From Bacteroides mediterraneensis (GTDB lineage Bacteria > Bacteroidota > Bacteroidia > Bacteroidales > Bacteroidaceae), in NCBI RefSeq assembly GCF_016900355.1, contig NZ_JACJKA010000008.1, positions 1 through 64,000 on the forward strand: DNA of 64,000 nt. Reading direction: 5' to 3'. Below are positions 11,597-43,944 of this stretch, piece by piece (the first letter of the stretch is position 1; every line of letters begins with the position of its first letter). The translations under genes were made by a program, and so were the position numbers. Below the pieces are notes generated by a model. That model had not been told where the DNA came from and did not search any database. It saw only the letters and a program-made list of their open reading frames with translations.

Positions 11597-13228
11597 ATGA
11601 AACAGTATCTATTATCTTTCATTTTCATCATTCTGGCCATCAGCTGCACCGAACAAGAAATAGAACCCGATTTTTCATTCCAGTCGGATACGGACGAGAT
11701 TACCTTAGCTGCCACAGCAAACTCTCAAACTGTAATCCGTTTTACCAGCACCCGCGAGTGGCAAGCTTCCACAAACAGCCAATGGCTGGGTGTGACTCCC
11801 GCGTCTGGAGAAGCTGGTACTTGTGAAGTAACCCTGACCGCCTATAGTACAAACCAAGAAAAAACATCCAGAAGCGCAGTTCTTCAGCTTGTCTCCGACG
11901 GATTAACCCAGTCGCTCACCGTTACCCAATCGGCTGCCGACTATGTCACGCTGGAACAGACGACCTATTATATAAACGCAGAAGGAGGAGCACTGGAAAT
12001 CAATTTTACCTCCAACCTGAGTACTGACGAACTATTTATTTACGGCACAAGTTCCTGGATTACACAAACGGAGGAGAGCCGGTCGGAGAAAGGATACGTA
12101 CTTCCCCTGACAGTTCAGCCCAACCCTGATGAAAATCCACGAACAGCCTATATTCAATTTTACAAAAGCAGTTCAATCCTTCCACAAAACGGTCTTTTGA
12201 ACAGCATAACCGTAATACAAGAAGGCACTAAACCGGTTACCTCCACCGACTATTCGGCCGACAAAACCGTGCATATTTTCCAACAGGCCAGCGAAGGAAA
12301 AGGGCTCCCCATCGTACTCATGGGAGACGGTTTCTTGGATACGGAAATAGCTGACGGCACCTACGACAAGGTCATGAACAAGGCCATGGAAAACCTGTTC
12401 ACCGAAGAACCCTTGAAATCCCTGCGCAACTATTTCAATATCTATTCCGTCACAGCCGTTTCCAGCAGCACAAAGTTTGATGGCCTCAGCACTACTTTCG
12501 GATGCCAGATGGAAGGTGGTACAAGCACCCTCGTATTCGGCAACGATGAAACCGTCATGGAATATGCAAAATGTGTGGAAGGACTCGATCCTTCCGAAAT
12601 GCTGGCGGTAGTGGTACTCAATTCATCCGCCTATGCAGGAACCACCTATTTCGGATATGGCACCACCACCCAGATGAGCGAACTCGCCATTGCTTATTGC
12701 CCCATCATCGAGGACCTGGAAAACGAAATGTTCCGGGAAGTACTTGTGCACGAAGCGGTAGGACACGGATTTGCCAAACTGGAAGACGAATACAGCTACG
12801 ACGGACGGATTTCTTCTACCGAAATCCAGCAAGTGCAAACACTGCAAAGTTACGGATGGGCACAGAATGTGGATTTCACCCAAGACGAAAATACGGTGCT
12901 ATGGGCTTCCTTCCTTACTGACAGCCGCTACGACGATGAAAACATAGGTATCTACGAAGGAGCCTGCACGTATATGTATGGAGTATATCGCCCCACCGAA
13001 GACAGCATGATGAACAGCAACACCTGCGGCTTCAACGCTCCGTCACGAAAAGCGATTTACGACATGGTAATGAAAAGAGGAGAAAACCGCACTCCTACCT
13101 ATGAGGAGTTCGTCACATTCGATCAGTCACAAAGCACGCAGACACAAAGCCTCAGACGGACTTCCACACAAAGCCACCGTCCGTTTGCCCGGCCACACTT
13201 TGTCAACAAGCCACTGCCCACTCGATAA
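11597..13228 (+). CDS. BACON-domain lipoprotein with M64 (IgA-peptidase-like) metallopeptidase domain
   Basis: The chosen ATG at 11597 gives 543 residues beginning with a lipoprotein signal (MKQYLLSF, lipobox LAISC); an earlier ATG at 11516 would bury it. Two BACON-like beta domains follow (about 20-120 and 120-220, with the typical REWQASTNSQWLGVTPASG stretch), then a peptidase domain. The zinc motif HEAVGHGFAKLEDEY begins at His385, as in family M64. The tail is Ser/Thr/Arg-rich. BACON domains are thought to bind carbohydrate or glycoprotein, so a surface or periplasmic peptidase acting on host glycoproteins is plausible. Cleavage of IgA is not shown. Confidence 0.88.
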   Translation: MKQYLLSFIFIILAISCTEQEIEPDFSFQSDTDEITLAATANSQTVIRFTSTREWQASTNSQWLGVTPASGEAGTCEVTLTAYSTNQEKTSRSAVLQLVSDGLTQSLTVTQSAADYVTLEQTTYYINAEGGALEINFTSNLSTDELFIYGTSSWITQTEESRSEKGYVLPLTVQPNPDENPRTAYIQFYKSSSILPQNGLLNSITVIQEGTKPVTSTDYSADKTVHIFQQASEGKGLPIVLMGDGFLDTEIADGTYDKVMNKAMENLFTEEPLKSLRNYFNIYSVTAVSSSTKFDGLSTTFGCQMEGGTSTLVFGNDETVMEYAKCVEGLDPSEMLAVVVLNSSAYAGTTYFGYGTTTQMSELAIAYCPIIEDLENEMFREVLVHEAVGHGFAKLEDEYSYDGRISSTEIQQVQTLQSYGWAQNVDFTQDENTVLWASFLTDSRYDDENIGIYEGACTYMYGVYRPTEDSMMNSNTCGFNAPSRKAIYDMVMKRGENRTPTYEEFVTFDQSQSTQTQSLRRTSTQSHRPFARPHFVNKPLPTR

Positions 13229-13290
13229 GTATTCGAGGTAAAGTCTCTATTTACAAAGAGTTATTTTGCAAACGCTTTACTCTTTTTTAT

Positions 13291-13378
13291 GTTTTCCGTA
13301 GCGGGAACGTATGTTTTCCTTCTGCGAAACGTAGGTTTCCGCCGTGGGAAACGTACGTTTTCCCATAGGGAAACATAG
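13291..13378. repeat. array A: four tandem 22-nt palindromic units
   Basis: Units start at 13291, 13313, 13335 and 13357, each exactly 22 nt. A unit is GTTTtCC, a 3-6 nt variable loop, GGAAAC, then GTAT, GTAG, GTAC or ATAG. Half-sites GTTTCC and GGAAAC therefore alternate about every 11 nt. Both within-unit hairpins and junction palindromes (AAACGTACGTTT) can form. The array lies between the convergent M64 and exchanger genes, separate from the terminator at 13423-13460. It is homologous in sequence to array B. Confidence 0.9.
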
Positions 13379-13422
13379 AAAACAAAACGGAGAATGACGC
13401 TTTATGTATTGTCATTTACAAA

Positions 13423-13460
13423 AAGAACGCCCCGAACCTTTTCAGATTCAGGGCGTTCTT
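13423..13460. terminator. terminator between M64 gene and exchanger gene
   Basis: Arms AAGAACGCCC and GGGCGTTCTT with an 18-nt loop. A T-run follows on the minus strand and a T-rich stretch on the plus strand, so it may serve both convergent genes. Confidence 0.8.
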
Positions 13461-13481
13461 CTTATTTTAATTCTACTATAT

Positions 13482-15161
13482 TTATCCCGCCATCAGCAAG
13501 ACAAGCAGCTGTGCAGTCAGAATACGCAAGAACATGGCCAACGGATATACTGTAGAATAACCTACGGCCGGTGCATCGTTTCCCGCAATCTGATTGGCAT
13601 AAGCCAAGGCTGGAGGGTCAGTATTACTACCGGCAATCAAACCCATTAGCGTGAAATAGTTCACCCGATGATGCCAGCGAGCCACAATACCCGTAATAAT
13701 CAATGGAATAAAGGTAATCAGGAAACCGACTCCTACATAAAGTATACCATCTCCTTCTACCACCATCTGTACGAAATTCTCGCCGGCCTTGATTCCTACA
13801 CTGGCAAGGAAAAGTACCAGACCGACCTCACGCAACATCAGATTGGCACTCATCGTGGTATAGGTAACCAGTTTTACCTTATGACCGAAACGGCCAATCA
13901 AGATGGAAATAATCAGCGGACCACCGGCCAGACCCAGTTTCACCGGAGTCGGCATGCCCGGAATGGCAATCGGCAGACTACCGAACAAGATACCACAGAG
14001 GATACCCACAAAGATAGTCACGATGTTCGGATGGTCCAGACGGCGCAACTGGTTACCCAGCAAGTTAGCTACCCGTTCAATGGCATCCTGCGGACCGACC
14101 ACCATCACACGGTCGCCCACCTGCAAACGAAGCTGACGGGCCGCAAACAAGTCCATACCTGAACGGTTGACACGCGTCACGTTCACCCCATACATGCTGC
14201 TGAAGTGAAGCTCTCCCAAAGTCTTTCCGTTGATGTTCGGCTGCGTCACCAAAATACGGCGGGAAACCATCGGTTTGTCCTGCTGACCAGTCGCATCCCA
14301 GTCCTGGTCAATCTTCGGACCGATAAAAGCCATAATGGCTTCCGAGTCATCCTCGGCACACACCAGAAACATACGGTCGCCCAACCGCAATACCGTATTG
14401 GCATTCGGAGTCACCATGTGTTCATCCTGAATGATACGGGTACACACAAAGTCACGTGCCAAAAAGTTCTGCACCTGCGACAAGGTCTTGCCACTCAATG
14501 CCTCATTCTGCACCTTCAGCGATATGGTATAAGGCTTCATGTGCGGATTGGCTTCTTCCTCTTTCTGGATTTCATCGCTATCCCGCTTTACATCCACCCG
14601 GCAGATATAACGGATAAGAATCATGGAAAGAATGATACCCATCACGCCCAGCGGATAGGCACAAGCATATCCCATGGCGATTTCCGGTCCCTGATAATGG
14701 AGCTGCTGCAACGCCTCGTTGGCCGCACCAAGTCCCGGTGTATTGGTTACCGCTCCACAAAGAATACCCACCATCATCGGAATATCAATTCTGCCTTGCA
14801 GGGCGAAATACAGAATCAATGCCACGGCAATATTCAGTACCACAATTCCTACTGCCAACAAGTTGAGCGTAATACCCCCTCGTTTGAACGAAGAAAAGAA
14901 AGAAGGGCCGACCTGAAGTCCGATACAGAAGACAAAGAGAATCAGTCCGAAGTCTTGTACGAAAGAAAGTATGGCCGGATTTCCGGTAAAGCCGAAGTGT
15001 CCTGCCAAGATTCCGACAAACAAGACGAATGTAACTCCCAGCGAAATGCCGAAGAATTTAATTTTTCCCAACAATACCCCCGCCGCAATCACAAAAGCAT
15101 AAAGTGCCACGATGTGCGCTATAGAGTTGGGATTTGTAAACAAATCTTGTAGCCAATTCAT
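13482..15161 (-). CDS. aspartate-alanine exchanger (AspT/YidE duplication) family transporter
   Basis: A 559-residue inner-membrane protein with two halves of about five hydrophobic segments each, separated by two RCK-C/TrkA-C regulatory domains (about 200-370; [13 protein letters not shown] and [13 protein letters not shown] are matching strands). This is the layout of the putative transport protein family that includes AspT. The start is set at MNWLQDLF because the upstream ATG at 15200 adds a non-conserved extension. Aspartate:alanine exchange is known for AspT; the substrate here is unknown. It has its own terminator. Confidence 0.85.
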
Positions 15162-15378
15162 AGTTATTAAATTTTTTATTCGGAAGGCAAATGTAACCAA
15201 TTAAAAACAATAGGGCAAACTTTTCTTTCTTTTTTCCTGACAGAGAATCCGAATAAGTATCTTATGTACACTTTTTTCTTTGACATGTACCAGAACCAGC
15301 ATGCCGATAGTTTCACGTTTTTAGGCTTTCAAGACTGTAAAAAAAGAAAGAATGTAAGATAAACAACCGGAAAATTTG

Positions 15379-32737: not shown

Positions 32738-32801
32738 CGGTCAGTAAAACGAATCTGAAAACACTGCTTGCTTTTCGGAAAAACACGTTTGTCCCGACTA
32801 A

Positions 32802-32889
32802 GTTTCCCTACCGTAAAACATACGTTTTCCCCGGCGGAAACGTATGTTTCTGCGAAGGAAAACGTACGTTTCCGCCAAGGGAAACCTAA
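32802..32889. repeat. array B: four tandem 22-nt palindromic units
   Basis: Units start at 32802, 32824, 32846 and 32868, each exactly 22 nt, with the same plan as array A: GTTTyCC, short variable loop, GGAAAAC or GGAAAC, then a 4-nt joint (ATAC, GTAT, GTAC). A degenerate fifth unit of 15 nt precedes it (32787-32801). Junction palindromes such as AAACGTACGTTT recur. It occupies the gap between convergent nudix and guaD, where no ordinary terminator is seen. Confidence 0.9.
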
Positions 32890-32927
32890 AAAACGACAAG
32901 ACACTACTGCCTCATTGCCGCATCATC

Positions 32928-43616: not shown

Positions 43617-43788
43617 TCAATCTTACCCCCGCATACAAATACAATACAAGAAAATCCCAACCAGATTCCCGGAGGTTAAAATTACGGAGATTTATGGTAT
43701 GAAGGGTAATTTCTGCCAAAAAATTGTGCAGCAACCGTCGTTAATTACAAACACCCGCAAGAATAACCGTAAATGCTCCTGTTTATTC

Positions 43789-43872
43789 TCTGTTTCACAC
43801 TGCGGGATTTGTATTTCACAGTGTGAAATATGTATCCCACACTGTGGTTTTTGTATCCCACACTGTGGTACA
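43789..43872. repeat. array C: four tandem 21-nt palindromic units in a 328-nt gene-free gap
   Basis: Units start at 43789, 43810, 43831 and 43852, each 21 nt, built on CACAGTGTG or CACACTGTGG dyads with a TGTAT joint. Perfect 7-nt inverted repeats TTCTCTG (43786-43792) and CAGAGAA (43871-43877) bound it. TTTCACACTG (43793-43802) can also pair with CAGTGTGAAA (43819-43828). The sequence is unrelated to arrays A and B but the plan is the same. The rest of 43617-43944 holds the Crp/Fnr leader and nothing else I recognise. Confidence 0.88.
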
Positions 43873-43944
43873 GAGAAATCGCCTAAAGGTTTTACACCTT
43901 ATCTACTTGTATTTCAATGAATTTACCCTTTCATTCCACAAAAT

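What the first reader, a model, noticed from the sequence alone, without database searches (positions are those of the whole stretch)
13291..13378. Array A: helically phased 22-nt palindromic tandem repeat
Seen: four back-to-back units of exactly 22 nt whose GTTTCC and GGAAAC half-sites alternate about every 11 nt, one helical turn, so all sites lie on one DNA face. Loops and joints vary while the half-sites hold, and junction palindromes such as AAACGTACGTTT also form. The whole array is nearly symmetric on both strands. It lies between convergent genes beside a normal terminator. Inference: a multi-site protein-binding element or an RNA with switching hairpins. I know no named family that matches.
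Basis: partly seen in the sequence, partly recalled or inferred. Interest (0 to 1): 0.7.

Follow-up and report, generated by a model that had tools for sequence, protein, structure and literature searches.

The report
Four-site tandem DNA elements in Bacteroidaceae
The array is one of at least 33 DNA elements with the same layout scattered through the genome of this gut bacterium, each with four mirror-image 22-base sites that look built to hold a protein complex, and related bacteria seem to carry elements with the same layout but different letters.

Summary
In 91 copies from four genomes a four-unit core fits better than two, three, five or six units; one further copy has five units and one is truncated. 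Patterning reaches about 93 bp either side of a dyad centre. In 329 distinct units, changes at mirror positions are not compensated as base pairs, so an RNA hairpin is unlikely. Half-sites are of two kinds, so the four units run → → ← ←. Between 28 orthologous pairs half-sites are held (9.7% different) while loop centres drift (35%). Neighbouring genes share no theme. The family is abundant in 4 of 399 sampled family genomes. A second family (21 bp × 4) shares the genome and replaces the first at one locus of a relative. In 1.5 Mb sampled from seven other Bacteroidaceae, 23 of 25 intergenic four-copy arrays of period 16-40 have period 21-23. Best reading: a lineage-diverse class of multi-site protein-binding platforms, probably architectural. 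The bound protein is unknown; a transposon-derived origin is not excluded.

The parts
13240..13425 (.). Array A, full patterned element (about 186 bp, dyad centre 13332/13333)
   Evidence: profile of 90 elements shows base preference to about +-93 bp of the centre
13283..13382 (.). Array A core (100 bp): TTTTYTAN, four units, NTARAAAA
   Evidence: 2 of 68 constrained columns mismatched; four units fit best
13291..13312 (+). Unit 1 (outer half-site type alpha, inner type beta)
   Evidence: half-site types from the 90-element profile
13313..13334 (+). Unit 2
13335..13356 (-). Unit 3 (inverted relative to units 1-2 by half-site type in the profile)
13357..13374 (-). Unit 4 (inverted; 18 bp without the outer joint)
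32794..32893 (.). Array B, second copy of the same family, core 100 bp
   Evidence: 6 of 68 constrained columns mismatched; TRF
43787..43876 (.). Array C, a copy of the second family: TCTCTG followed by four 21-bp units TYYCACASTGTGRRATNNRTA, the last ending in CAGAGA
   Evidence: further copies

Best explanation
Shown: the array is one copy of a dispersed element with a fixed plan, four 22-bp pseudo-palindromic sites in the order → → ← ← about a dyad, inside about 186 bp of phased A/T tracts, whose half-sites change several times more slowly than its loops. Inferred: it works as double-stranded DNA, as a loading platform on which four dimers of a sequence-specific DNA-binding protein sit two helical turns apart on nearly the same face and assemble into one complex that bends or wraps the flanks. 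Inferred with less confidence: since the neighbouring genes share no theme, the complex acts on the chromosome (an anchor, boundary or compaction site at gene borders) rather than as the operator of a regulon. Inferred, boldest: the protein and its site change together between lineages, so that related species carry elements with the same plan and other letters.
For: Copies: 75/74 matches at up to 1 mismatch against 0/0 control in the own genome; 33 arrays read. Plan: 91 elements fitted (33 in G000, 40 of 41 G020 loci, 17 of 17 G024 loci looked at, 1 in G017) with 2-12 of 68 constrained columns wrong, the next best separate place in each locus at 27 or more; in all 91 four units fit better than 2, 3, 5 or 6. 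dsDNA not hairpin: 329 distinct units, no compensation, strong dependence between neighbouring bases. Polarity: G at half-site position 5 in 2, 50, 7 and 29 of 180 for half-sites counted from outside in. Selection: 28 orthologous pairs, 9.7% difference over constrained A/C/G/T columns, 23% at R/Y, 35% at loop centres. Copies at different loci have on average no shared loop sequence: 0.277 against a column-shuffled null of 0.277, with fixed-column identity 0.87 (G000). No regulon: 40 of 63 neighbour ORFs scanned, 36 with a Pfam match, no shared theme. Same plan elsewhere: second family; period peak at 21-23 in seven other genomes.
Against: No binding protein was identified and no gene co-occurrence was tested. 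Unit number is not absolute: one orthologue has five units, one copy is truncated, and own copy L034 has a degenerate unit-like stretch just outside its fourth unit (4 of 12 mismatches). One slot holds the other family in a relative, so the sequence is replaceable there. Position along the G020 chromosome is only weakly biased to the inferred origin (mean distance 861 kb against 1011 kb, p about 0.05; 0.11 without four rRNA-linked copies). Orthologous pairs were found by the motif itself, which favours conserved copies, and several rest on one flank or on rRNA-linked paralogues. Predicted ORFs of at least 90 aa overlap 10 of 33 own copies or contain 7 of 33, so 'intergenic' rests on judging these spurious. 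Divergent gene pairs are over-represented, which would also fit a role at promoters.
Confidence: 0.6

Rival explanations
1. Transposon-derived miniature element (MITE-like): the four sites are transposase-binding sites, two per end, inverted between the ends, with imperfect terminal repeats near +-85-93 bp; copies spread by transposition and are relics or still mobile.
For: Dispersed, two sites direct and two inverted as at transposon ends; weak end motif AAAACGC / GCGTTTT; families differ between lineages; the array-B gap is about 163 bp shorter in 2 (G009, G045) of 7 species without the array that I measured; one copy in G017 sits beside ORFs that look like a conjugative element (by eye).
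Against: In the other 5 of 7 measured species that gap ranges from 60 bp shorter to longer than in G000. No consistent target duplication in 73 family-1 copies and 19 family-2 rows or in a column test of 50 non-redundant copies. The strongest conservation is internal, not terminal; copies share no loop sequence on average; half-sites are held between orthologues; no Y1 (REP-type) transposase in the genome. Other transposase classes were not searched.
Confidence: 0.22
2. Operators of a global transcription factor at many promoters.
For: Divergent gene pairs exceed convergent ones: 14 to 4 in G000, or 10 to 4 in G000, 10 to 7 in G020 and 9 to 4 in G024 by the second ORF caller; gaps of at least 200 bp in G008 and G060 are 23 divergent, 23 convergent, 72 co-directional. 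Palindromic half-sites. Some copies lie upstream of rRNA operons.
Against: No common function among the neighbours scanned; invariant four-site plan regardless of context; copies also between convergent genes (arrays A and B).
Confidence: 0.1
3. Topological sites, for example strong gyrase or HU/IHF-like sites, comparable to BIMEs.
For: Dyad with phased A/T tracts over about 186 bp; some copies near rRNA operons.
Against: Strict sequence in eight half-sites and lineage-specific letters are not expected of a conserved enzyme; not tested directly.
Confidence: 0.06
4. RNA element: hairpins acting as terminators, mRNA-end protectors or switches.
For: Each unit can be drawn as a hairpin, and most units keep the consensus pairs.
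Against: Changes are not compensated; T-runs precede and A-runs follow the core on both strands, the reverse of an intrinsic terminator; all gene orientations; no Rfam match there at gathering threshold.
Confidence: 0.02

Closest known systems
REP/BIME repeats with RAYT transposases (PMC3733652, passages seen)
   Same: Dispersed, palindromic, lineage-specific families
   Different: Fixed four-unit array; no Y1 transposase in this genome; no compensated hairpin. A GTAG tag was not looked for
ERIC-type and MITE-type fixed-length repeats (ERIC recalled; MITEs of Porphyromonas in PMC5771137, passages seen)
   Same: Fixed length, inverted symmetry, dispersed
   Different: The conserved part is an internal four-site plan; no target duplication found
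matS/MatP and SlmA sites (PMC3116907, passages seen: matS 13 bp, 23 times in Ter; SlmA site 12 bp, 50 times)
   Same: Tens of short palindromic sites for one protein across a chromosome
   Different: Single sites rather than four-site arrays; here no clear chromosomal territory and no known protein
parC centromeres of ParMRC plasmid systems (PMC9426499, passages seen: four 17-bp direct repeats in parCC; pSK41 20-bp repeats; family-specific ParR-parC pairs; DNA wraps around ParR)
   Same: A few tandem sites near two helical turns apart; pairs of protein and site differ between families
   Different: There one site upstream of parM; here dozens per chromosome, inverted about a dyad, no ParM among scanned neighbours
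parS / Noc-binding sites (sequences recalled, from no call)
   Same: GTTTC...GAAAC-like half-sites
   Different: Spacing of 18 bp and four tandem units; no ParB-family protein was searched for

Membership tests
REP/RAYT | cognate Y1 (RAYT) transposase in the genome | tested here: not met
   PF01797: 0 matches in G000; rings in 5 of 14 control genomes, E. coli among them
REP/RAYT | hairpin with a maintained paired stem | tested here: not met
   no compensation in 329 distinct units
MITE | terminal inverted repeats | tested here: inconclusive
   weak AAAACGC/GCGTTTT preference near +-85 bp
MITE | target-site duplication | tested here: not met
   no consistent direct repeat; old copies may have lost it
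MITE | clean empty site in a relative | tested here: inconclusive
   array-B gap about 163 bp shorter in 2 of 7 measured species, flanks too diverged for a junction; array-C slot in G024 likewise unalignable
Intrinsic terminator | hairpin followed by T-run at gene 3' ends | tested here: not met
   T-run before, A-run after; all gene orientations
matS-like macrodomain sites | restricted to one chromosomal territory | tested here: inconclusive
   weak origin bias, p about 0.05
matS-like / Noc-like sites | bound by a dedicated protein | not tested
   no binding data; no gene co-occurrence test was run
parC centromere | adjacent ParM/ParR genes | tested here: not met
   none among the 40 of 63 own neighbours scanned
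Minisatellite (neutral tandem repeat) | unit number varies freely | tested here: not met
   four units best in 91 of 91 fitted copies; one five-unit and one truncated copy besides

The most novel reading that the evidence does not exclude
Bacteroidaceae carry a general chromosome-organising system whose sites are always about four palindromes of 21-23 bp about a dyad, but whose recognition sequence is rewritten from lineage to lineage together with a fast-evolving DNA-binding protein, several such systems coexisting in one genome and replacing one another at the same slots.
Probability: 0.3. Interest if true: 0.9.

Novelty: new variant of a known kind. Interest (0 to 1): 0.72.

Why it matters
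A class of chromosomal elements defined by geometry (four sites, two turns apart, inverted about a dyad) rather than by sequence, present in dozens of copies and apparently under selection, gives a direct handle on how these chromosomes are organised: the bait DNA for a pull-down is the window sequence itself. If protein and sites co-evolve, it would be a rare bacterial case of a genome-wide recognition system that is rewritten between related species.

Tried and rejected
RNA hairpin or terminator: rejected on lack of compensation, T-run polarity and gene orientation. REP/RAYT: no Y1 transposase. Plasmids and phages: no match of array A in either collection. Viral contigs: 9 hold the 26-mer; 6 of 9 are lone matches, but 3 (L071, L073, L076) have 22-bp-phased sites of this kind in printed stretches; with the four-unit core L073 has 14 mismatches of 68, between the elements (2-12) and the background (27 or more), while the best places in L071 and L076 have 21 and 20. 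I do not count them as members; I cannot call them chance either. A contig titled Clostridiales (L068) matched once, not tandem (core 35 mismatches). A 31-base pattern of the second family had no match in viral contigs and an inverted form none in the window. Origin clustering: suggested by the first listing, weak when tested (one locus of the 40, L078, has the opposite GC skew to its neighbours). Founder locus with the cognate gene: the G017 copy is an orthologue-like copy beside conjugative-looking ORFs. Clean empty sites: flanks too diverged. Presence or absence of G020 element L097 in G000: the flanks were not found there. Target duplications: a 2-bp signal at offset 39 in one scan (21 of 73) did not survive the column test, whose best of 400 cells has z 2.9. 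In one search the G053 row was aligned in the wrong orientation; that G053 carries family 1 at this slot rests instead. Literature: seven topic searches (open-access library only, listings and abstract starts seen) showed no title or abstract start describing this element; passages of PMC5771137 and PMC3733652 were seen; two searches were for comparison systems. Intergenic placement: ORFs of at least 90 aa overlap 10 of 33 own copies, and a second ORF caller puts 7 of 33 own, 15 of 40 G020 and 1 of 17 G024 copies inside an ORF; I take them as spurious because of the repeat, but did not prove it.

Full report
What is there. Array A is four 22-bp units, GTTTYC-N6-GRAAAC-NTAN, from window 13291, far above chance. 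A second copy, B, is at 32802-32885 and a differently lettered 21-bp array, C, at 43787-43876.

Copies and plan. The own genome (G000, 107 contigs) gives 75/74 matches at up to one mismatch against 0/0 for the reversed pattern and 109/113 against 14/14 at three (of which 100 places were listed). I read 33 arrays, so 33 is a lower bound. A 100-bp core pattern with 68 constrained columns fits 33 own elements, 40 of 41 G020 loci, 17 of 17 G024 loci looked at (a part of that genome's copies) and one G017 copy, with 2-12 mismatches, while the next best separate place in each locus has 27 or more. Against cores of 2, 3, 5 and 6 units, four is best in all 91. Exceptions outside this set, both in G020: L095 is truncated, and L184 has five units in exact register where its own-genome orthologue has four. 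Own copy L034 has a degenerate unit-like stretch beyond unit 4. The base-preference profile of 90 elements continues to about 93 bp either side of the centre, as A/T tracts in the 22-bp phase plus a weak AAAACGC-like end motif.

dsDNA, not RNA. The consensus unit is palindromic. In 329 distinct units of 360, however, changes at mirror positions are not compensated: at positions 5/14, 6/13, 7/12 and 8/11 pairing (G-U allowed) is 0.74, 0.66, 0.45, 0.29 against 0.77, 0.69, 0.55, 0.39 shuffled. The mutual information at 7/12, 8/11 and 9/10 does exceed or reach the shuffled maximum, but at 7/12 and 8/11 in the direction of avoiding pairs; 9/10, adjacent in the loop centre, is above expectation (0.53 against 0.39) and cannot pair in a hairpin. 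T-to-G at position 2 is compensated in 2 cases and not in 80. The strongest dependences are between neighbours (11-12, 7-8).

Hidden polarity. Half-sites counted from the outside differ: G at position 5 occurs in 2, 50, 7 and 29 of 180, and position 10 is C in about 81% of ranks 1 and 3 but 51-56% of ranks 2 and 4. So each unit has an outer and an inner half-site, and the four units are two direct plus two inverted.

Selection and age. 28 orthologous pairs between G000 and G020 differ at 9.7% of constrained A/C/G/T columns, 23% of R/Y columns and 35% of loop centres. Pairs were found by the motif, which biases towards conserved copies; several rest on one flank or are rRNA-linked paralogues. 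Of two own elements without a listed G020 partner that I followed (L039, L040), one corresponds to the five-unit copy and one to a slot taken by the second family. Between different loci of one genome, mean loop identity equals the column-shuffled null (0.277 in G000, 0.278 in G020); the most similar pairs in G000 are rRNA-linked.

Where. Of 33 own copies 14 lie between divergent, 13 between co-directional and 4 between convergent neighbours, 2 have one neighbour only; in 10 of 33 a predicted ORF of at least 90 aa overlaps the array. The second ORF caller gives 10, 11 and 4, one one-sided and 7 inside an ORF. Pfam on 40 of 63 neighbours shows unrelated enzymes, transporters and regulators (two ECF sigma factors, one TetR, one with a response-regulator-type DNA-binding domain); 4 of 40 have no match. 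Of 11 loci with the shared flanks searched, 8 carry the FopS sRNA; 16S rRNA is in reach in L056, L061, L088, L091 and L120 and partly in L117, 5S in L109. The GC skew of 40 G020 loci puts the origin near 3.78 Mb; the origin bias of the copies is weak.

Who has it. Of 61 genus genomes, 4 have it in bulk (G000, G020, G024, G053) and 3 have one match each; of 399 genomes of the family, the same 4 plus G017. An exact-match scan of one genome for each of 84,980 species found six stretches of Bacteroides mediterraneensis and one lone match elsewhere, with the caveat that records near the window may be left out. One viral contig (L073) has an array with 14 mismatches to the core, so the plan may also occur on phage or prophage DNA.

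A second family and a wider class. The 21-bp family has 63/63 matches in G000, 58/57 in G020, 36/36 in G053, 3/3 in G024, small numbers in six others and none in 51 of 61. Of 21 distinct arrays viewed, 18 have four units by the rule used and 3 have three plus a degenerate one. At the slot of own element L040, G020 carries this family, while G024 and G053 carry the first. I then scanned 1,514,223 bases sampled from seven genomes without the first family in bulk (G008, G017, G026, G060 of the genus; G201, G070, G083 of other genera) for four-copy arrays of any sequence, periods 12-40, low-complexity units dropped. Leaving out 29 arrays of period 12-15 (21 of them of period 12), 37 remain: 22 of period 22, 4 of 21, 3 of 23, 8 others. 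Of the 29 with period 21-23, 23 are intergenic by the ORF caller and 6 inside ORFs; of the 8 others, 2 are intergenic. Several unit sequences recur within the G026 sample (by eye), and some resemble the window's half-sites. Units of period 21-23 are more self-complementary than random 22-mers (0.69 against 0.50). Markov shuffles gave none. E. coli K-12, 250 kb, gave 4 arrays of period 16 or more, none of 21-23. The threshold was not fixed beforehand and the sample is small, so the generality is a strong lead rather than a census; G017, G008 and the other-genus samples give few arrays each and G026 gives about half of them.

Mechanism. Fixed number, phase and dyad, constrained half-sites, free loops and lack of compensated pairing point to a protein complex on double-stranded DNA. 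That it is architectural, and that protein and site co-evolve, is inference. A transposon-end origin explains the → → ← ← plan and the dispersion, but no target duplication was found, and slow change of half-sites in old copies would then still need a role that keeps them.

Noticed in passing
window 43787-43876: Copy of a second dispersed four-unit family (21-bp units around CACASTGTG, beginning after TCTCTG and ending in CAGAGA).
   Followed up: partly
L180 2193-2352 (G020) against L040 2404-2504 (G000): The same slot holds the 22-bp family in G000, G024 and G053 and the 21-bp family in G020.
   Followed up: partly
L073 503-603 (viral contig IMGVR_UViG_2857861838_000001); also L071 and L076: 22-bp-phased GAAAC/GGTTTCC-like sites on GC-rich viral contigs; L073 has 14 mismatches of 68 to the four-unit core.
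   Followed up: partly
L320, L323, L324; L321, L325; L233, L326; L238, L239, L241 (G026): Apparently four different recurring 22-bp array families in a 400-kb sample of one genome, grouped by eye.
   Followed up: no
L215 (G008) 2587-2672; L226 (G017) 12850-12940: Four-unit 22-bp arrays with TCAC-N4-GTGA cores in two other species of the genus.
   Followed up: no
window 13420-13463: Inverted repeat followed by T's that looks like an ordinary terminator between array A and the gene at 13482-15200; read by eye.
   Followed up: no
L118 9717 (G017): Lone family-1 element beside ORFs that look like a conjugative element (read by eye).
   Followed up: partly
L184 and L189 (G020:C1:3097073-3106971): About 8 kb inserted near the five-unit element, with 24 bp of query overlap at the junctions.
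   Followed up: no
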